Assembly (NCBI RefSeq): GCF_033880585.1
Contig: NZ_CP137624.1
Span: 124,001 to 188,000, forward strand
DNA length: 64,000 bases
Origin: Lysinibacillus louembei
GTDB lineage: Bacteria > Bacillota > Bacilli > Bacillales_A > Planococcaceae
Direction: 5' to 3'
This document shows positions 2,560 through 43,451 of the stretch, in pieces (the first letter of the stretch is position 1; each line of letters begins with the position of its first letter). Both the position numbers and the translations under genes were made by a program. The notes below the pieces were generated by a model, which ran no database searches, had not been told where the DNA came from, and saw only the letters and a list, made by a program, of their open reading frames with translations.

Positions 2560-3543
2560 CTATCTAAAATATTTTGAATCATACGTAAATTTCGCCATAC
2601 CAAATTCCCCATTTTCAATGTCAAATATCCGCACGCTTTCTACAGTGTCAGAAACATTTTCATAACGTAATGCGTAGTTCGTATCAGCTTCTTTTTTCAT
2701 TTTTGAAGAAGGTGTAATACCAAATAGTTTGAAAATATCATCCTTATTCTCAAAACTACCTATAATATCAGTTGTATCTCCTTTAGATTGCCCAGAATAC
2801 ATATCTAATTGCATAACAATATCATCGAATAAAATGAATTCGTATTTACTGTCTTCATATACATATAACTTCCCAACTATTTCTTGATTAGTTTTAGGTA
2901 CTCGCCATTCATAATCTTCGATTCTTTGTGGTTCTCCCATGATTTCAATTAATTTTGCGCTATTTATTTTACTAAATTGAGTAACATCAATAATTGTTTC
3001 TACTGAGCTTTTTTCAGTGTTTTGCAAGTTCCCTATTACAATAGCAAAAATGACAGCGAATGCTATAATTGCTAAGCAACCAATAGGTAAACAACCTTTC
3101 TTTTTTTGTTGTGTATTATAATTGTTGTTATTAATACCACTATTACTTGTATTGTTGTCTACCGGTGGATTGTTATCAAAGATAGAGGCATTGGATGCAT
3201 TAAACATTTTTTGGATTAATATTTTATATATTTTATCATCTATCTCCACTAAACTCTTTTTACCATCCCTAAATTCAATAGCAACATGATGTGTTCCTTT
3301 ATTTTTGGCACTTAGCCCAGCGAGTAACCCTACTGGTCCCAATAAAACTCCTCCAACTAAACCTCGTGAAACGCCAGAAACAGCACTTTTTCTATGCTCT
3401 TCTGTAATCAATTCATAATTTGCTATAGTTGATTGATCTAATTGCAAAATTTGTTTAAATCCTGAGTTTAAACTAATAAGCCCTAATGTTCTCACCACAG
3501 AGCAATTAAGATAATCGCCAGCAACCACCTTATTTTTTGCCAT
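2560..3543 (-). CDS. Membrane-anchored protein of unknown function, probable moron
   Basis: A 327-aa protein inserted between the tail chaperones and the tape measure, where structural genes are normally adjacent. Residues 1-115 form a soluble domain with a glycine-rich stretch (SRGLVGGVLLGPVGLLAGL). An Asn-rich linker and one membrane segment follow at about residues 148-172 (after KKKGCLPIG), then a C-terminal domain of about 155 aa with alternating polar and aromatic residues. It has its own ribosome binding site (AGGAGGTGC), a terminator behind it, and an AT-rich upstream region carrying an inverted repeat. Its base composition is more AT-rich than neighbouring tail genes. I do not recognise the family. 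Superinfection exclusion or a host-fitness role is speculation from topology and location. Confidence 0.6.
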   Translation of the reverse strand: MAKNKVVAGDYLNCSVVRTLGLISLNSGFKQILQLDQSTIANYELITEEHRKSAVSGVSRGLVGGVLLGPVGLLAGLSAKNKGTHHVAIEFRDGKKSLVEIDDKIYKILIQKMFNASNASIFDNNPPVDNNTSNSGINNNNYNTQQKKKGCLPIGCLAIIAFAVIFAIVIGNLQNTEKSSVETIIDVTQFSKINSAKLIEIMGEPQRIEDYEWRVPKTNQEIVGKLYVYEDSKYEFILFDDIVMQLDMYSGQSKGDTTDIIGSFENKDDIFKLFGITPSSKMKKEADTNYALRYENVSDTVESVRIFDIENGEFGMAKFTYDSKYFR

Positions 3544-8822: not shown

Positions 8823-9866
8823 TTAGTTTACTTGCGCGATGAAAATGTTATCGATTGTTTCAAAGCTTGGCATTACGATTTCAGACACAATCGTTTCAAC
8901 GTTTACTGGATGTGGCTCCTTAACTGTTGTAATTGCAACACCTGTGTTAACAATGGAAACCTCGGCATTTGACTGACCTGTTAGTAAATCTGATTCCTCT
9001 GGCGTTGTACCGTAGTAAGTATTGCCTAACGTACCATCCGGAATAAGCGTAAAGAAGTCATCTGGATAGAAGTTGTTTGAAGTGCCATCCTCAGCAAGAT
9101 ACTTTTTGTTATATACTGCAACTGAAATACCTAGTTTGTCTTGTAGGTACTGCTTCAAAATTGCATCGGTTAAGATGATATTTTGCCCACCTAACGGGTT
9201 CATATCCAAACGAATGCTCGGGTGCTTTAATAAATAACCAAACGTTTTACGCGTTAAAATAGCTTTTGTTGGGCGAACACCTGTATTATCCTCTACAGTG
9301 TCCTGCCAACGGATAATGTCCTCAATTGGTGTAGCATCAGCATTGCTCCATACAGCATTTCCTGCAAGGGCCTCTTTATGATCAGTTTTCATTTTATAGT
9401 CATAATCAAAATCTTGGCGATTTGCTGTGATTTTAATTTTACCTGTGGAAAGTAGCTGCATAATCATTCGCTCAGGCTGTACATTGGCACCGTTCACTAG
9501 ATTCGTAATGTCATCATAAATATTAGCGATTAAAGTTCGTGTCATGCTATCTAAATTAGATGATAACAAACGATTCAACTCTTGACGGTCTTTCTCTCCT
9601 ACTCGCATCGCTTCACGGAAGAATGGCATTTCTGTTTCTACTTTTTTAAAGCCAATACGGTCACGTAGCGTTGCTTTCGCATCGAATTCAGACGGCATCA
9701 AGGCTACAGGTAAACCCTTCGAGCCTTTAATCCAACTCAAATCTAAACCTAATTGTTTTTTAGGTGGGAACAGTGTCGCTCCTAAATACGGAATATTATT
9801 CGATGGGTTGTTTTCATAATAATCCGCAATTTCTTTCGCTTTTACTAAATCAAAAATTGTTGGCAT
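8823..9866 (-). CDS. Major capsid protein, lambda gpE-type
   Basis: A 347-aa protein that starts MPTIFDLVKAKEIADYYEN, followed by YLGATLFPPKKQLGLDLSWI, the hallmark of the Phage_cap_E family. It follows a separate scaffold gene and a decoration gene, as this family usually does. The ribosome binding site lies in the 16 nt after the decoration gene. Confidence 0.92.
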   Translation of the reverse strand: MPTIFDLVKAKEIADYYENNPSNNIPYLGATLFPPKKQLGLDLSWIKGSKGLPVALMPSEFDAKATLRDRIGFKKVETEMPFFREAMRVGEKDRQELNRLLSSNLDSMTRTLIANIYDDITNLVNGANVQPERMIMQLLSTGKIKITANRQDFDYDYKMKTDHKEALAGNAVWSNADATPIEDIIRWQDTVEDNTGVRPTKAILTRKTFGYLLKHPSIRLDMNPLGGQNIILTDAILKQYLQDKLGISVAVYNKKYLAEDGTSNNFYPDDFFTLIPDGTLGNTYYGTTPEESDLLTGQSNAEVSIVNTGVAITTVKEPHPVNVETIVSEIVMPSFETIDNIFIAQVN

Positions 9867-9882
9867 TAACTTTCATCCTCTC

Positions 9883-10254
9883 TTATTTTAAAAATGTAAT
9901 TTGTTTTAATGCTGCTTTTTCTTCATTTGTTGGTGCTGTAGGCAACTTATCTAAAGCAACAAAACCATGAATCAGTAACGCACCGGAAGCAGGGCCATGT
10001 GTTACATCGGTATCATTAAACAGAATCCCTTCAGCATTTGACACGCCTTCGTCAGTCGTTGCTTTTACCGCCTCGATAGTATCATCCTCTAACACGCCAC
10101 CACCCAAAATAGTCCCAGCTGGTACGATTTTTTTACCTTCACTATTGGCAGTAACCCCTACATCAGAAACAGTAATTGCTAAATTTACATAGTGGTCTGG
10201 AAACTTTAAAATTTCCTTTTTGTTTGTATAAGTTGTTTCTACAAATTTACTCAT
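9883..10254 (-). CDS. Head decoration protein, lambda gpD-like
   Basis: A 123-aa beta-rich protein with KKIVPAGTILGGGVLEDDT and a C-terminal SGALLIHGFVALDKLP stretch. This is the pattern of HDPD/gpD-type decoration proteins that stabilise expanded capsids. It is located between scaffold and capsid genes, where this family sits. Confidence 0.8.
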   Translation of the reverse strand: MSKFVETTYTNKKEILKFPDHYVNLAITVSDVGVTANSEGKKIVPAGTILGGGVLEDDTIEAVKATTDEGVSNAEGILFNDTDVTHGPASGALLIHGFVALDKLPTAPTNEEKAALKQITFLK

Positions 10255-10273: not shown

Positions 10274-10879
10274 TTATTCGAAATATTTTTCGCGAGCAGT
10301 ATCTAATTGCTCGGTGCCTTTTGAACGTTCTTCCGCTATTAGTTTGCCTAAGCTAAACTCTGCACCACCGCCACCTCCTGTACGAGCTTCTGCAGGGGTG
10401 AAACCTTTAAACTGCGTTGTTTCGGCCTTTTCAGGCACAAACAAAAAGGACTTTGATTCTTGCAGTGTTTTAAGCTGCTCATCTAGTCCTTTAGTGACGT
10501 TTCCGTCCTTATCCAATTCAATTGCATTTCGGTCAATCAAGGCCGCTACTAAGTCTACGTCATGCACTTTACCGTTTAGCGATAGTTTTAAAGCGGCGCT
10601 CATGCGTTCGTTAGTAAGTTGCTGCTCGTACTCTGTTTTGGCTGTTTCGTTAGCCTGTTGTAGTTCTGTGATTGTCGCTAGGAGTTGCTCATTGCCTTTA
10701 GCCTTTTCCTGCAAATCCTTCAACTGTGTTTCATGCGTTTTCACCTGTTCTTCAAGTGCCTTTTTTGCATTATTCACTTCGTCAAAACGCTCTTTTGGAA
10801 TCATGTTTCCGTATTTCTCAACAATGGCAGTTGCCTGTTCCTCGCTCAATCCCATTGCTAGTAAATCTTCTTTTTTCAT
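10274..10879 (-). CDS. Phage capsid scaffold protein, GP20 family
   Basis: A 201-aa protein with an N-terminal MKKEDLLAMGLSEEQATAIV, a long coiled coil at about residues 35-100, and a C-terminal capsid-binding part (SLGKLIAEERSK). This is the Phage_GP20 minor structural/scaffold family. It begins the capsid assembly block. Two short stem-loops lie between this gene and the upstream gene. Confidence 0.85.
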   Translation of the reverse strand: MKKEDLLAMGLSEEQATAIVEKYGNMIPKERFDEVNNAKKALEEQVKTHETQLKDLQEKAKGNEQLLATITELQQANETAKTEYEQQLTNERMSAALKLSLNGKVHDVDLVAALIDRNAIELDKDGNVTKGLDEQLKTLQESKSFLFVPEKAETTQFKGFTPAEARTGGGGGAEFSLGKLIAEERSKGTEQLDTAREKYFE

Positions 10880-10896: not shown

Positions 10897-10990
10897 TCGT
10901 TTTTTACAGGTAACGGCCTGTTAGGTTAAACACTTTCAGTTTAACGTCATAAAGCGCTAAAAAGACGAATAATTATTCGTTGCGTGCAAT
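10897..10990. other. Cluster of short inverted repeats between scaffold gene and acb2-like gene
   Basis: Three palindromic elements lie within about 90 nt: ACAGG-6-CCTGT (about 10908), GTTAAAC-7-GTTTAAC (about 10925) and a perfect 14-bp CGAATAATTATTCG over the end of the upstream gene, followed on the minus strand by CTTTTT. The last may be a weak terminator after the Acb2-like gene. The others could be RNA processing sites or regulator sites for the capsid block. Confidence 0.4.
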
Positions 10991-11185
10991 AGCTGCGTTT
11001 GCCCACATCACAGCAGTTTCAAGGTTTGTCATAGCTACTGACTTTTCACGTGAATTAGGACATGTTTCATCAATTAAATAAGCAAGCTCTTTTGCCTTTT
11101 CGCGAATAGCTTCATATTTTTCCTGTTGCCCTTCTTTCGGACTGTGATACATAAAATTATTTTCAATTTGTTGGTTTAACGGCAT
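10973..11185 (-). CDS. Acb2/Tad1-hairpin family protein, candidate anti-CBASS sponge
   Basis: A 70-aa protein. An ATG at 11191 is too close to AGGAGG, so I chose the ATG at 11185. The motif order is MYHSPKEGQQEKYEAIREKA, then LAYLIDETCPNSREKSVAMT, then LETAVMWANAAIARNE. It is the pattern I know from the small all-helical Acb2 family (DUF7681). Members bind and sequester cyclic di- and trinucleotides made by CBASS cyclases and so block abortive-infection effectors. It sits between minor head and scaffold genes, outside any obvious regulatory module. Family membership is from memory of the motif; binding activity of this protein is inferred. Confidence 0.75.
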   Translation of the reverse strand: MPLNQQIENNFMYHSPKEGQQEKYEAIREKAKELAYLIDETCPNSREKSVAMTNLETAVMWANAAIARNE

Positions 11186-11296
11186 TTTCATGTCCTCCTA
11201 AAATTATAATTTGCTATTTAACGCATAGTTGCGAGATTCATAGACCACCAAACCTCTCCGCTATATCAGCAGTTTGACGCTACTTTACGCCATAAT

Positions 11297-11333
11297 AAAA
11301 ACCATTCTGCCGATACTAGCAAAATGGTTTTTA
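11297..11333 (-). terminator. Terminator overlapping the stop of the 74-aa gene
   Basis: The minus strand reads AAAACCATT, a 15-nt loop, then AATGGTTTTT. The hairpin begins at the stop codon of the gene at 11331-11555. It separates the minor head block from the Acb2/scaffold/capsid block. Confidence 0.7.
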
Positions 11334-11555
11334 CTCATACATATCTTCAACGATATCGAATTTCGCCACTTCCAACATTCCTAAAGCTTCCAAAGCACTA
11401 CCATCAGAAGCAGATACCTTAATGGTGCCATCTTTTAATTTTACTACACTAAACACACGTTCTATTTGTTCGACATTTTGAAGTAGGTGCTCTAACGTTG
11501 CTTTTACGGTGATAATTCCGTCACGTTCAGCCCTTTTTTCATTAAAATCAATCAT
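11331..11555 (-). CDS. Small acidic phage protein, function unknown
   Basis: A 74-aa protein (EKRAERDGIITVKATLEHLL, then VFSVVKLKDGTIKVSASD). It has mixed alpha/beta character, no cysteines and no membrane segment. It directly abuts the upstream 148-aa gene and ends at a terminator, so the pair closes the portal-minor head operon. Confidence 0.6.
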   Translation of the reverse strand: MIDFNEKRAERDGIITVKATLEHLLQNVEQIERVFSVVKLKDGTIKVSASDGSALEALGMLEVAKFDIVEDMYE

Positions 11556-12002
11556 TCAATCACCAACTTTTTCATAAATAACCTTGAAAGTATCGGGCTT
11601 GCATAGATGCAATTCGCCTTTTTCGTTCTTAATGATGTAGTCCCCAAACTGCGCTTTCTGAGTACCATCCCATGCGTGGATATAAAGCTCTCCATAATCT
11701 CCTATACTCCAACCTGTGTTTCCTCCCACAAAGTTTTGGAATTCACTTACCGTGCTTCCAACTACATAATGAAAGACTTCATTCACTACCGACGGAAACG
11801 ACTTTGCGCGATATTTCACAGGAGCAACCACTTGTTCTTTTTCATTGGAAATGGAATAGAAAAGAAGATTATCATACGGAATGAATAACTCTCCTTCACT
11901 CGCATGAACTCGTACTCCTTTTTCTTCTTCTATTACAGATTTTATTTCTTCAATTTTATAGTCTTCGTGGCTCTTTAAATGTATTTTTATGAATTTCGTC
12001 AT
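11556..12002 (-). CDS. Phage protein with C-terminal GDYII-CKP-YE domain
   Basis: A 148-aa protein; the ATG at 12002 has GAGAGG upstream and overlaps the minor head stop as ATGA. The C-terminus (QFGDYIIKNEKGELHLCKPD, then FKVIYEKVG) is a small domain seen at the end of many phage proteins of unknown role. The N-terminal part (IHLKSHEDYKIEEIKSVIEE) looks like a short alpha/beta unit. Confidence 0.65.
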   Translation of the reverse strand: MTKFIKIHLKSHEDYKIEEIKSVIEEEKGVRVHASEGELFIPYDNLLFYSISNEKEQVVAPVKYRAKSFPSVVNEVFHYVVGSTVSEFQNFVGGNTGWSIGDYGELYIHAWDGTQKAQFGDYIIKNEKGELHLCKPDTFKVIYEKVGD

Positions 12003-13033
12003 TTTACAAACCTCTCTTTCCATTGTGGGTATTTAATATCGCTCGGAATGTAATACACCTTACCGTCTCTATCTCTAGCTACTCTTTGACTGTAATCATC
12101 AGGAAACCATGGTGCTGTAGTAGTACGACAAAAAGGGTGAAATGGATTGGCTGTGACACCAGGCTCATAATCACTCATCTTGAATACTTTCCCGTCCATC
12201 GACTGGCAAATATCACTTGTTTTACCGTCAAGTGTTGCTACAATCTCGTATTTATCTACATCTAATTCGTTAAACACCTCTTTTTGTGCTGCCGCATTAA
12301 AAAAAGCCGATTCGGTCATGACTAAGCGGCTGATTTGATACCTAGAATTAGTTGAGTTGAATTTTTGATGCAAAACTTTAATAATTGATTCTGGATGTTT
12401 ACCTGTCGAAATATTGTGTACAAGTTGCGTATACAGCGTATCAATCAACACATTTTTATCACGCCATAAGCGCCTGCTAAACGTCATACCATCGGCTGTC
12501 CATGGCTTGCTGATAACCTTATCTAACAATCTGTCATTAAGTACTTGCATGGTAAAACCAACGTTAAAACCTTTTTGCACCTCGTAAGCTGTATGGTAAT
12601 ACTGCGATTGGTACTGCTCTTTAATAAAGCGCTCAAAGCCCTCTATTTGACCGTCATACAGCTTTTCGATATGCTGTTGCATTTGTATTCGTAAACTCTC
12701 TAATCGGCTTATATGGACACGAGAGGACGCATTTTCGAGTTCTTTCATCCACTTTTGATTGACGGCATTCTTTTTTCCATATTTGATATATTCCTCAACC
12801 GTCCAACGGAACTCTTTTAATTCATCGCTTTTTAGCAGCATTTTAGCTTCATCTAGTGTGATTTCGTTGTTTTCGGCGAATCTGCTGTACCATTTGAGGA
12901 TGTCTTTTTCCAAGTCGTCCATCGTGTGAATATACGCCTTAACTAAGTCGTCGTAGTAAAAAAGAGAACGCCTGTGTTGCGCGTCCTCTAATAACTCAAA
13001 ACGTTTACGCCAATACTCTCTACTCTTGGTCAA
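11999..13033 (-). CDS. Minor head protein, SPP1 gp7/Mu gpF-like
   Basis: A 344-aa protein started by TTG at 13033 with AGGTGAGG upstream. The C-terminal half carries the gpF/gp7 signature (RLVMTESAFFNAAAQKEVFN, then CQSMDGKVFKMSDYEPGV, then NPFHPFCRTTTAPWFPDD). These proteins bind the portal and act at DNA ejection. It follows the portal gene with a tiny membrane-protein ORF in between. Confidence 0.88.
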   Translation of the reverse strand: MTKSREYWRKRFELLEDAQHRRSLFYYDDLVKAYIHTMDDLEKDILKWYSRFAENNEITLDEAKMLLKSDELKEFRWTVEEYIKYGKKNAVNQKWMKELENASSRVHISRLESLRIQMQQHIEKLYDGQIEGFERFIKEQYQSQYYHTAYEVQKGFNVGFTMQVLNDRLLDKVISKPWTADGMTFSRRLWRDKNVLIDTLYTQLVHNISTGKHPESIIKVLHQKFNSTNSRYQISRLVMTESAFFNAAAQKEVFNELDVDKYEIVATLDGKTSDICQSMDGKVFKMSDYEPGVTANPFHPFCRTTTAPWFPDDYSQRVARDRDGKVYYIPSDIKYPQWKERFVK

Positions 13034-33827: not shown

Positions 33828-33849
33828 CAATTTCGAAGAGGTGAAAAGT

Positions 33850-34263
33850 ATGTTTTCTGAACGGTTGAAAAAACTAAGGAAGTCAAAAAATCTAAGTCAA
33901 TATGAATTGGCAGATAGATTAGGTTTTTCAAGAGGGAAATTAGCAAATTATGAGCAAGGAACACGTGAACCAGATTTCTCTACATTAGAGTTAATCGCTA
34001 AATTCTTTGATGTATCAACTGATTATTTGTTAGGTGTAGGAAGCAGTAAGACCGAATATGACAATAAAGCAGAAAAAGACATCGCCAAACGTTTGAAACA
34101 GTTCGAAGCAGACCTCGAAAATTCGGACGGTCTAGCCTTTGACGGCGAACCTTTAAGCGATGAAGCAAAAGAATCGTTACTGGAATCAATGGAATTACTA
34201 CTTAGACAAACCCAGCGAATCAATAAAAAATATACGCCAAAGAAATACAGAAACGATGAATAA
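33850..34263 (+). CDS. CI-like phage repressor
   Basis: A 137-aa protein. The GTG at 33841 overlaps the ribosome binding site; the ATG at 33850 follows GAAGAGGTG and is preferred. The N-terminal HTH (SERLKKLRKSKNLSQYELAD, then RLGFSRGKLANYEQGTREPD) is followed by a short acidic linker and a helical C-terminus. There is no LexA-type peptidase domain, so induction probably depends on cleavage by the neighbouring ImmA-type protease, as in ICEBs1 and phi105-like phages. Confidence 0.88.
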   Translation: MFSERLKKLRKSKNLSQYELADRLGFSRGKLANYEQGTREPDFSTLELIAKFFDVSTDYLLGVGSSKTEYDNKAEKDIAKRLKQFEADLENSDGLAFDGEPLSDEAKESLLESMELLLRQTQRINKKYTPKKYRNDE

Positions 34264-34783: not shown

Positions 34784-35890
34784 ATGGCGTACTATCGCAA
34801 ACGCGGTAACTCTTGGGAATATAGAATAAAATACAATGAAAGTGGACAACAAAAAACATTATCTAAAAGTGGATTCTCTTCTAAATCCGCTGCACGTGCT
34901 GCTGCAATATTAGTTGAAGAAAAATTGTTTAAAGGTGGCATTGATGAAGTACGTAAGGGAGAAATGTTGTTTGAGGACTGGGTACAACGCTACAAAAAAA
35001 TCCATGATTCCCAGCGCCGTGAATCCAGTAATGTTTCAGCTGAAAATGGACAAAAAAAGTTATTAGCACGATTTAGTGGCTATAAATTAAAGAACATAAA
35101 TCGTGAAGAATACCAAATCTTTATAAATGAATTATTATTTGAACATGATTATAGTAAGAACACCGTTGACAGAATACATGGTGAAATGATGTCTATTATC
35201 AATACTGCTGTGGAACACGAACGACTTGAGAAAAATAAATTACGTTCTATTTCTATCAAAAAAGATGAAGACAACAATAAAATAATATTTTTGACTTTAG
35301 AGGAATCACAAAAGTTGCTAGAAGTTATGGAAACACAAGAAATGTTTAAAAAAGTGATGGTGCATATTTTACTCAAAACAGGTATTCGTAGCGGCGAACT
35401 TTTGGGTTTAATGTGGAAAGATATAAGCTTTGAAAATCAAACTATGACAATTGATCGTCAACGCACTCGAGACGGCTTAGGACCGTTAAAAACTGATGCA
35501 TCATATCGAACAATAGTTATTGACGACGAGTTAAATGACTTATTAAAAGAATTTCAAGCATGGCAAGAAGAAAATAAATCTAATGATGATACTTATATAG
35601 AATCAGAGTATGTCATGGTAGATGAAACAGGCAAGTTATTTTATCATACAAAACCACAAGATATGATGAAAAACTTTTTACGTTATGCTAAAATACCTGA
35701 AAGAAAATCAACACATTTACTACGACACACACATGCTGTTTTATTGTTAGAGGCAGGGGTCGATATTAAAACAGTATCCACTAGGTTGGGGCATAAAAAT
35801 ATAAATATTACAGCAAACACATATTTGCATGTCACTCAAAATCATGAACAAAAATCCATCGAAAAATTTATAAACTACCTCAATTTTTGA
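34784..35890 (+). CDS. int: Tyrosine recombinase integrase
   Basis: A 368-aa integrase with an AP2-like N-terminal arm (YYRKRGNSWEYRIKYNESGQ), SAM-like core-binding domain and catalytic domain: Arg in LKTGIRSGELLGLMW, HLLRHTHA (H-x-x-R), LGHKN and the Tyr nucleophile in ITANTYLHVTQ. It is the last prophage gene; the attachment site should lie between its stop and about 35,970. Confidence 0.95.
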   Translation: MAYYRKRGNSWEYRIKYNESGQQKTLSKSGFSSKSAARAAAILVEEKLFKGGIDEVRKGEMLFEDWVQRYKKIHDSQRRESSNVSAENGQKKLLARFSGYKLKNINREEYQIFINELLFEHDYSKNTVDRIHGEMMSIINTAVEHERLEKNKLRSISIKKDEDNNKIIFLTLEESQKLLEVMETQEMFKKVMVHILLKTGIRSGELLGLMWKDISFENQTMTIDRQRTRDGLGPLKTDASYRTIVIDDELNDLLKEFQAWQEENKSNDDTYIESEYVMVDETGKLFYHTKPQDMMKNFLRYAKIPERKSTHLLRHTHAVLLLEAGVDIKTVSTRLGHKNINITANTYLHVTQNHEQKSIEKFINYLNF

Positions 35891-41617: not shown

Positions 41618-43439
41618 AGAGGCTGGGACAAAACCCATCCCCAAATTCAAAAGCCGGTGAAATTTTACAATCAGTAAAATTTCACCGGCTTTCATTTTTG
41701 GATTAAAAATAAGGATCTCTTCTGATAAAATTAAGTTACCACACAAAATCAATCTAGAAAGAAGGATCCTTATGTTTAAAGATTATAACATGAATCAATT
41801 AGTTTTACCGCTGGATGTTGAAATAAAATTACAAGAACACGATATCGCCTTCTCTATTCATCAATTAGTGGAAAGTATCCCCACAGAAGCTTTCGCTCCT
41901 TTTCTGCAACAAACCGGCTGTCCAGCCTATCACCCACGTATGATGCTCAAGCTCATTTTATGTGGCTATACCCAATCAGCGTTCTCTGGTCGCCGAATTG
42001 AAGACCTGACGAAAGATAGCCTTCGTATGATGTGGCTTGCGCAAGGCTATCAACCAAGTTACCGTACCATCAATCGTTTCCGTGTTCACCCATTGACAAA
42101 GGAATTGCTTCGTCAATGTTTCGTGCAATTCCGTTGTCAACTGGTGAAGGAGGACCTGATTGCGCAAGAAGCCATTTTTATTGACGGCACGAAAATCGAA
42201 GCAAATGCGAACAAATTCACCTTTGTGTGGAAACGTTCGATTGAAAAATATGAAGCGAGTTTGGTGGAAAAATCAAACCAGCTGTATGAGGAATTACTGC
42301 ACCAACAAATTATACCAGCCATCGAACAAGAAGTGGAAACGCAGCTGTCCATCACTGAATTAAAGCAGGTGGCAGAAAAATTAGAAGAAGTCGTAGCCGA
42401 CTATACAGAAAGAATCGAGCAATCCGAAAAGGCACAAGAGCGAAAGCAGCTACGAAGTGAACGAAAAACACCGAAACAACAATGGAAGCAAGTAAACGAG
42501 TGGATCACCCGCAAACAGAAATATGAACGAGATTTTGCGATTTTCGGCAAACGGAATAGCTATGCCAAAACAGACCCTGATGCAACTTTTATGCGCATGA
42601 AGGATGACTACATGCAAAATGGCCAATTAAAAGCGGGCTACAATTTACAAATTGCGACAGAGGGACAGTACACATTGGCTTATGGCATTTATGCGAATCC
42701 AACGGATACGAAAACGTTGATTCCCTTCTTGGATGAAATCGAGAGACGCTATTTTCAATTGCCACAACATATCGTAGCCGATGCCGGCTATGGTAGTGAG
42801 CCAAACTATGAAGATGTACGAAACAACCGAAAGTGTGAACCTGTGATTCCCTATACGCATTATCGAAAAGAGCAAAGCAAAAAATACCAACAAGACCCCT
42901 TCCGAACAAGTAACTGGATGTATGATGAAGAGTTGGATACCTATATCTGTCCATACCAGCAAAAAGTAACGTTCCGCTATGAGTCAACACAAGAAGACAA
43001 AGAAGGATTCCAACGAACGTTTCGTATCTATGAATGCGAAGACTGTACCGGTTGTCCATTTCGAGAGAAATGTACGAAAGCCCAAGAAGGCAAGTCACGG
43101 AAAATCAAGGTAAATGAAAACTGGGAACAACAAAAAGCATATGTACGTACAAAGCTTTCAGAAGCCAAAGCAGGAACTCTCTACCGTCAACGAAAAGTAG
43201 ATGTAGAACCAGTTTTTGGCTGTCTGAAGGCTAATTTAGGTTTTACTCGCTTTTCGGTTCGTGGTCAATCGAAGGTGGAAAACGAAATCGGCTTCGCTTT
43301 GATGGCCGTGAATCTACGAAAGTATAGGTGGAAGAGGAAATCTTCTTCCAGTTCTTCCTTTCACACATCAAAAAATCGAAATCACCTGATGCGATTTCGA
43401 TTTTTTGTATGGACTAGAACTATTTATGTCCCAGCCTCT
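41618..43439 (+). mobile_element. IS1182-like insertion sequence, about 1.82 kb
   Basis: Bounded by 13-bp perfect inverted repeats (AGAGGCTGGGACA at 41618-41630 and TGTCCCAGCCTCT at 43427-43439) and carrying one transposase. Each end has a hairpin: an 18-bp perfect stem at 41651-41691 and a 14-bp stem at 43370-43406, which probably block transcription into or out of the element. I see no target duplication. It lies between the RND pump gene and prfC. Confidence 0.88.
41651..41691. terminator. Left-end hairpin of the IS
   Basis: Arms 41651-41668 and 41674-41691 are perfectly complementary over 18 bp with a 5-nt loop. On the plus strand it is followed by a T-rich stretch, so it can stop transcription entering from the pump side. 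Confidence 0.7.
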
Positions 43440-43451
43440 ACAGTATTATAA
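41772..43451 (+). CDS. IS1182-family transposase
   Basis: A 559-aa DDE transposase. An N-terminal domain ([20 protein letters not shown], then [20 protein letters not shown]) precedes the catalytic part with [20 protein letters not shown] and [15 protein letters not shown] zinc-like set [13 protein letters not shown] follows, with a C-terminal [16 protein letters not shown]. Ribosome binding site AAAGAAGGATCC before ATG. The frame runs through the right inverted repeat and uses a stop 12 nt outside the element, so its last residues come from host DNA. Confidence 0.92.

What the first reader, a model, noticed from the sequence alone, without database searches (positions are those of the whole stretch)
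10973..11185. Acb2-type cyclic-nucleotide sponge inside the capsid module
The 70-aa product has the motif series I associate with the Acb2/Tad1-hairpin family: YHSPK near the start, PNSREKS in the middle, AVMWANAAIARN at the end. Acb2 proteins counter CBASS immunity by sequestering cyclic di- and trinucleotides. Here the gene sits between minor head and scaffold genes and not with early genes. If timing follows the late operon, this would be a late, possibly virion-linked, anti-defence gene. Family by recognised pattern (established); activity and timing inferred.
Basis: partly seen in the sequence, partly recalled or inferred. Interest (0 to 1): 0.75.

Follow-up and report, generated by a model that had tools for sequence, protein, structure and literature searches.

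The report
Acb2 immune-signal sponge in capsid operon
A bacterial-virus gene lying among the virus's shell-building genes encodes a small protein of a known family that soaks up the chemical alarm signals bacteria use against viruses; both the protein and its place among shell genes have precedents, so it is a new member of a known kind.

Summary
It matches Pfam PF24729 Acb2/Tad1 hairpin at 90.6 bits, cut-off 27, without Tad1's beta domain. The AlphaFold2 model has the Acb2 protomer plan (pLDDT 93); T4 Vs.4-cGAMP is the top PDB fold, with weak E-values. T4's ligand Tyr8 is kept; the recalled pocket Lys is an Arg in 57 of 57 sequences. I read it as a cyclic-nucleotide sponge against CBASS-type immunity (0.85); activity is untested. 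The placement has a precedent: JBD67 carries acb2 between major head and head-tail adaptor. What stands out is a bias: in 34 of 46 related viral contigs with a recognised terminase, acb2 lies within 5 kb of it; one contig has a copy before terminase and another before scaffold, beside published immune triggers. Trigger-coupled expression is the boldest reading. I found nothing for a virion link, and an upstream terminator-like hairpin leaves timing open.

The parts
10973..11191 (-). acb2-like gene, 72 aa from ATG 11191 or, better spaced from the ribosome site, 70 aa from ATG 11185
   Evidence: ORF; PF24729 90.6 bits; phrog_1454; AlphaFold2 pLDDT 93.1; dN/dS 0.072-0.100
11194..11199 (-). Shine-Dalgarno AGGAGG, 8 nt before ATG 11185
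   Evidence: sequence
11294..11335 (-). 18-pair hairpin with U-rich end, terminator-like, overlapping the stop codon of ORF74 and upstream of acb2
   Evidence: fold -21.5 kcal/mol, z -6.95, 0 of 200 shuffles as stable; the consensus terminator scan did not list it
11331..11555 (-). ORF74, phrog_7268, function unknown; relatives recur near acb2 or in the minor head-scaffold slot of some loci
11556..12023 (-). ORF155, C-terminal part like phrog_419/1810/4502; function unknown
11999..13033 (-). MuF-type minor head protein
   Evidence: PF04233 E 6.5e-15; phrog_115
10274..10879 (-). capsid scaffold protein, next gene after acb2
   Evidence: PF06810 E 4.2e-43
9883..10254 (-). head protein next to scaffold, probably decoration
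   Evidence: phrog_909 'major head protein' E 2.4e-33; PF02924 decoration protein E 7.5e-4, below its cut-off
8823..9866 (-). major capsid protein E family
   Evidence: PF03864 E 2.4e-47

Best explanation
The gene encodes an Acb2 protein: a three-helix protomer (shown as a model) expected to form a hexamer (inferred) that binds cyclic di- and trinucleotides without cutting them (inferred). When the prophage is induced or the phage infects, the protein is made from the head-gene region together with scaffold and capsid proteins (inferred from strand, spacing and the lack of a terminator found between acb2 and scaffold), and sequesters the signal made by CBASS or related systems so that the suicide effector is not switched on before lysis (inferred from the family). 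The head module is an accessory slot for it: related genes are found before the terminase genes or inside the head genes of many related phages, and other relatives lack it (shown).
For: PF24729 90.6 bits; T4 Vs.4 and PaP2 gp26 hit the same model at 71.4 and 66.1 bits, JBD67 gp34 at 59.6. A profile of 57 sequences finds PDB 'Acb2 homolog 43' (E 2.8e-5) and Tad1 chains (E 0.002-0.022). [quoted passage not shown] Foldseek PDB ranks 1-2 are T4 Vs.4 with cGAMP, probability 0.99, and Acb2 8h2x is rank 5; in BFVD the 11 matches with E <= 0.001 are all named Acb2/Tad1 hairpin proteins, best E 4e-6. Y15 aligns with T4 Y8, whose Y8A mutant loses cyclic-dinucleotide binding; T55 with T4 T68, whose T68M is said to lower affinity; R48 with PaP2 R67. 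Purifying selection. SMODS cyclase domains in 16 of 151 genomes sampled from the host's family, half of them weak matches.
Against: No binding or plaque assay. The host chromosome has no SMODS or AGS_C match, so no cognate CBASS was found in this strain. Links to solved Acb2s are weak one by one: Foldseek has no PDB match at E <= 0.001 (Vs.4 E 0.12-0.23, rmsd 4.9-5.9; 8h2x E 2.0); the profile meets Vs.4 only at E 0.5; single-sequence phmmer finds homolog 43 only at E 0.14; hhalign aligns 20 columns to Vs.4 (68.5% probability) and fails on PaP2 Acb2 (0.2%). The bridge is the curated Pfam model. The pocket Lys is Arg, and T4's stacking F82 is Ala. Terminator-like hairpin upstream and no sigma-70-like site found between it and acb2 leave the transcript unknown.
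Confidence: 0.85

Rival explanations
1. An Acb2-fold protein that has become a head-assembly or virion factor and no longer acts mainly as a sponge.
For: Position between minor head and scaffold; same region in other relatives.
Against: Of 12 contigs with a related scaffold, 10 have no acb2 between minor head and scaffold and 8 have none anywhere in the contig, 6 of these 8 being 33-68 kb long, so it looks dispensable for head assembly (contigs may be fragments). A 77%-identical protein lies in a replication region (Tripp). Pocket residues are kept.
Confidence: 0.04
2. The same sponge fold, but aimed mainly at a Thoeris (gcADPR) or type III CRISPR (cA3) signal rather than CBASS dinucleotides.
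For: Same Pfam family as Tad1; the Tad1 hairpin motif is the part that matches; a staphylococcal Thoeris is triggered by the phage major head protein (PMC12578639 passages).
Against: No Tad1 N-terminal beta domain (72 aa, no strand); the review passages read attribute gcADPR binding to Tad1/Tad2, and cyclic di- and trinucleotides to Acb2 (PMC12043709).
Confidence: 0.15
3. Late placement serves to postpone sponge appearance so that Panoptes-type guards, which fire when Acb2 removes their decoy nucleotide, are not tripped early.
For: Panoptes is triggered by Acb2 (PMC12657218, PMC12657230 passages).
Against: Panoptes was not sought in this host; several phages keep Acb2 in replication or nucleotide-metabolism regions or, in T4, the vs region.
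Confidence: 0.05

Closest known systems
Acb2 of Pseudomonas phage JBD67 (gp34)
   Same: PF24729 gene (59.6 bits) in the structural gene run, between major head and head-tail adaptor; a JBD67 acb2 deletion is discussed in print (PMC13083879 passage).
   Different: After, not before, the capsid gene; about 44% identical to PaP2 Acb2, a type with a longer helix-helix loop.
Acb2/Vs.4 of phage T4
   Same: PF24729; best PDB fold match; Tyr8 = Y15, Thr68 = T55.
   Different: 88 aa with a long loop, in the vs/regB region; F82 not kept.
Acb2 homologues of Paenibacillus larvae phages (Pahemo, Hayley, Tripp)
   Same: 75-86% identical among the 60 records listed; Pahemo and Tripp copies hit PF24729.
   Different: Near the genome end or in the replication region; some are annotated as phosphomannomutase.
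Tad1
   Same: Shares the C-terminal helical hairpin motif SRE...MW.
   Different: Tad1 adds an N-terminal beta sheet (PMC12043709 passage) and its PDB chains are 123-138 aa; absent here.

Membership tests
Acb2 (Acb2/Tad1 hairpin, PF24729) | Match to the family profile above its curated cut-off | tested here: met
   90.6 bits against 27
[quoted passage not shown]
   AlphaFold2 model; description in PMC10419184 passage
Acb2 (Acb2/Tad1 hairpin, PF24729) | Conserved ligand Tyr (T4 Y8) | tested here: met
   Y15; Tyr in 54 of 57 aligned sequences, Phe in 2, His in 1
Acb2 (Acb2/Tad1 hairpin, PF24729) | Pocket Lys (PaP2/PaMx33 K26; recalled, no call) | tested here: inconclusive
   Arg30 in 57 of 57; basic, but not Lys
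Acb2 (Acb2/Tad1 hairpin, PF24729) | Homo-hexamer with pockets between protomers | not testable with these tools
   only single chains can be predicted here
Acb2 (Acb2/Tad1 hairpin, PF24729) | Binds cyclic nucleotides and inhibits CBASS | not testable with these tools
   needs bench work
Tad1 | N-terminal antiparallel beta sheet before the two helices | tested here: not met
   no strand in the model, 72 aa

The most novel reading that the evidence does not exclude
Trigger-coupled counter-defence: in this Acb2 clade the sponge gene is selected to sit on the same late transcripts that make known triggers or escape loci (terS-terL RNA and scaffold for a CBASS, capsid for a Thoeris), so that sponge dose rises with the alarm. 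The contig with one acb2 before terminase and a second before scaffold (L024/L126; Lysinibacillus-like, inferred from L005) would be the clearest case.
Probability: 0.25. Interest if true: 0.6.

Novelty: new member of a known kind. Interest (0 to 1): 0.33.

Why it matters
It adds a compact branch of Acb2 (70-72 aa, Arg in place of the recalled pocket Lys) that is frequent in phage contigs and often unnamed or misnamed in the records seen, and it shows that this branch tends to lie around the packaging and head genes. If the tendency reflects function, it gives a simple test of whether phages tie the dose of a signal sponge to the component that sets off the alarm. The gene itself is an ordinary, well-supported family member.

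Tried and rejected
Rejected: (1) Structural head protein: 10 of 12 contigs with a related scaffold have no acb2 in the slot and 8 of 12 have none at all. (2) Tad1: no beta domain. (3) A structured RNA of a known family in the acb2 leader: the 4 Rfam matches at E up to 5 were all below their gathering scores, and no tRNA was found in the window; only the hairpin stands out. (4) A sigma-70 promoter for acb2: none listed on the minus strand between hairpin and start; a TATAAT box near the ribosome site is not kept in L002. (5) acb2 as a uniquely swapped gene: between window and L002 the identity is 0.99 in ORF74, 0.84 in acb2 (0.80 in its last two thirds), 0.77 in the gap after it, 0.89 in the first 300 nt of scaffold and 1.00 in the capsid gene, but portal and minor head show low patches too, so ordinary mosaicism suffices. 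(6) Repeated independent moves between the two positions: the tree needs 7 changes as drawn (shuffled mean 14.5, 0 of 500 as low, so position is clustered on the tree), and strongly supported branches force only 1; not shown. (7) PADLOC and NCBIfam gave no match. (8) hhalign to PaP2 Acb2 failed.

Literature: searches in the held open library. In their listings and in the passages I read I saw no discussion of Acb2 within head genes as a pattern; this does not show that it is unpublished, since two founding Acb2/Tad1 papers that I tried are not held. Papers seen: passages only of PMC12657218, PMC12657230, PMC12043709, PMC12578639, PMC11722364, PMC10686824, PMC10419184, PMC13083879, PMC10286901 and PMC11953737; one abstract passage of PMC10196667; part 1 of 2 of the text of PMC13348362, which reports a putative Acb2 in a Microbacterium phage.

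Full report
1. What is there. The window is bases 124001-188000 of a 3.96 Mb single-contig chromosome. Host: a same-species genome has a contig of 110,725 bases (G002:C83), the length of a Metasolibacillus record in the named collection (L002), and a same-genus genome has one of 19,930 bases (G003:C252), the length of a M. meyeri record (L004); I infer Metasolibacillus. Minus-strand phage genes run from the window's start to about 33.4 kb, followed by a repressor-like ORF (33841-34263) and an integrase-like ORF (34784-35890), named by eye. A 22-bp direct repeat lies at window 35973 and 9.6 kb before the window, so the prophage is about 45.6 kb; its completeness was not tested.

2. The gene. 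Minus strand 10973-11191, 72 aa, or 70 aa from the better-spaced ATG 11185. dN/dS against L002, L003 and L131 is 0.072, 0.096 and 0.100, with dS 1.08, 1.31 and 0.78. Gene order is portal, MuF, ORF155, ORF74, acb2, scaffold, decoration-like, capsid.

3. Family. PF24729 at 90.6 bits, cut-off 27. T4 Vs.4 and PaP2 gp26 hit the same model (71.4 and 66.1 bits). That PaP2 has an Acb2 of known structure is in PMC11722364 (8H2J, passage); that it is gp26 is my inference from this match. The model (pLDDT 93.1) has the Acb2 protomer plan. Foldseek against PDB gives no match at E <= 0.001, but ranks 1-2 are T4 Vs.4 with cGAMP (TM 0.63-0.66 by query length, rmsd 4.9-5.9) and rank 5 is Acb2 8h2x; against predicted viral proteins there are 11 matches at E <= 0.001, all named Acb2/Tad1 hairpins.

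4. Pocket. On the alignment, Y15 = T4 Y8 = PaP2 Y11; R30 = PaP2 K26; R48 = PaP2 R67. T55 = T4 T68 and A69 = T4 F82. Published (passages): Y8A disrupts dinucleotide binding and F82 stacks on the ligand (PMC12657218); T68M lowers affinity (PMC12657230). The roles of Y11, K26 and R67 are recalled. In 57 aligned sequences, the window's included: Y15 54, R30 57, R48 56, T55 56.

5. Surroundings of relatives. From 80 viral contigs (the best 80 of 168 that encode a relative), 46 have a match to phrog_2 (28 of 40 and 18 of 40), a large-terminase family. In 34 of these 46 acb2 lies within 5 kb of it and in 45 of 46 on the same strand; among the 32 of at least 20 kb, 22 are within 5 kb against 6.6 expected from random placement. 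Caveats: the set is seeded by this protein; contigs are related to each other; 34 of 80 had no phrog_2 match, partly because other terminase types exist (the window's own matches phrog_30251, not phrog_2 at E 1e-10); random placement is a weak null. Linear distance can mislead: L054 counts as 39 kb away, but if its ends join, acb2 is about 3 kb before terminase (coordinates). Inside the head region: window, L002, L003, L004 and others.

6. The slot. Of 12 contigs with a related scaffold, 2 have acb2 between minor head and scaffold and 10 do not. Over the whole contigs, 4 of 12 have acb2: L126 twice, L127 in the slot, L120 and L128 before the head genes; 8 of 12 have none, 6 of them 33-68 kb long (contigs may be fragments). 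Most slots without acb2 hold other small ORFs, one weakly IrrE-like, below its cut-off. L126, the same contig as L024, has one acb2 before terminase and a second in this slot; 2 of 50 records examined have two copies.

7. Named phages. Of the regions opened, acb2 lies in or beside packaging/head genes in Quhwah (capsid protease to major capsid), UBSmoodge (directly after portal), Cheetobro (three genes before terS) and JBD67 (major head to head-tail adaptor), and in a lysis cassette in prophi91-3; these five products match PF24729 above its cut-off. It lies elsewhere in Pahemo, Tripp (61), Inca (58), CHPC971 (66), Yotsuba (67), Rosalind (68), Bantam (100), SecTim467 (102), CRB1 (104) and T4 (69), and at region borders in PaP2 (57) and VP882 (106). 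One opened region had no annotation. These were hand-picked from long lists, so no rate follows; as opened, more lie elsewhere than in the head region. JBD67 makes the placement a known one.

8. Why there. Published passages: a staphylococcal CBASS is set off by an RNA from terS-terL, and escape mutants map to terS and to the scaffold gene (PMC10686824); a Thoeris system is set off by the major head protein (PMC12578639); an acb2-deleted phage escaped CBASS with a major capsid mutation (PMC10419184). [quoted passage not shown] Acb2 is said to act in induction and not in lysogenic maintenance (PMC12043709). Simpler reasons, such as a tolerated insertion slot in a strongly expressed operon, are at least as likely; anti-CRISPR genes are also said to share operons with structural genes (PMC10196667 abstract).

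9. Timing. The scan lists no minus-strand terminator between acb2 and scaffold and that gap folds no better than chance (z -0.47), so they are probably co-transcribed. A hairpin of -21.5 kcal/mol, z -6.95, closes ORF74 just upstream. It may separate terminase-minor head transcription from an acb2-scaffold-capsid unit, or be read through; unknown.

10. Host defence. No SMODS or AGS_C match in the host; SMODS in 16 of 151 genomes sampled from its family, 8 of them above 80 bits and the other 8 at 31.9 to 51.1 bits at best (in one of these 8 genomes two places match). Other signal systems were not sought.

11. Verdict. A sound family call, a position with precedent, and a positional bias worth an unbiased test.

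Noticed in passing
window 11294-11335, minus strand: Very stable 18-pair hairpin right after ORF74 and upstream of acb2, inside the head operon; identical in L002.
   Followed up: partly
L024 / L126 (one contig, IMGVR_UViG_2627853777_000004): Two different acb2 genes in one phage contig, one before large terminase and one between minor head and scaffold.
   Followed up: partly
Paenibacillus larvae and Brevibacillus phage records: Some Acb2 homologues are annotated as (putative) phosphomannomutase, apparently a spread misannotation.
   Followed up: no
window 11556-12023, minus strand: ORF155 shares a C-terminal stretch with several phage families, and relatives lie close after acb2 in L042, L052 and L053; a possible companion gene.
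   Followed up: no
window 35973 and 9.6 kb before the window start (L130): 22-bp direct repeat flanking the prophage, likely attachment cores; prophage about 45.6 kb.
   Followed up: partly
window 2560-3543, minus strand: 327-aa ORF with a membrane-like stretch, next to the tape measure gene; looks like an accessory insertion (by eye).
   Followed up: no
window 41772-43451, plus strand: 559-aa ORF that looks like an insertion-sequence transposase near the prophage (by eye, not searched).
   Followed up: no
PMC11722364 passage; Acb2 is called relatively rare there, yet 340 and 230 phage records (overlap not checked) match two Acb2 queries and 168 viral contig stretches match this one.
   Followed up: partly
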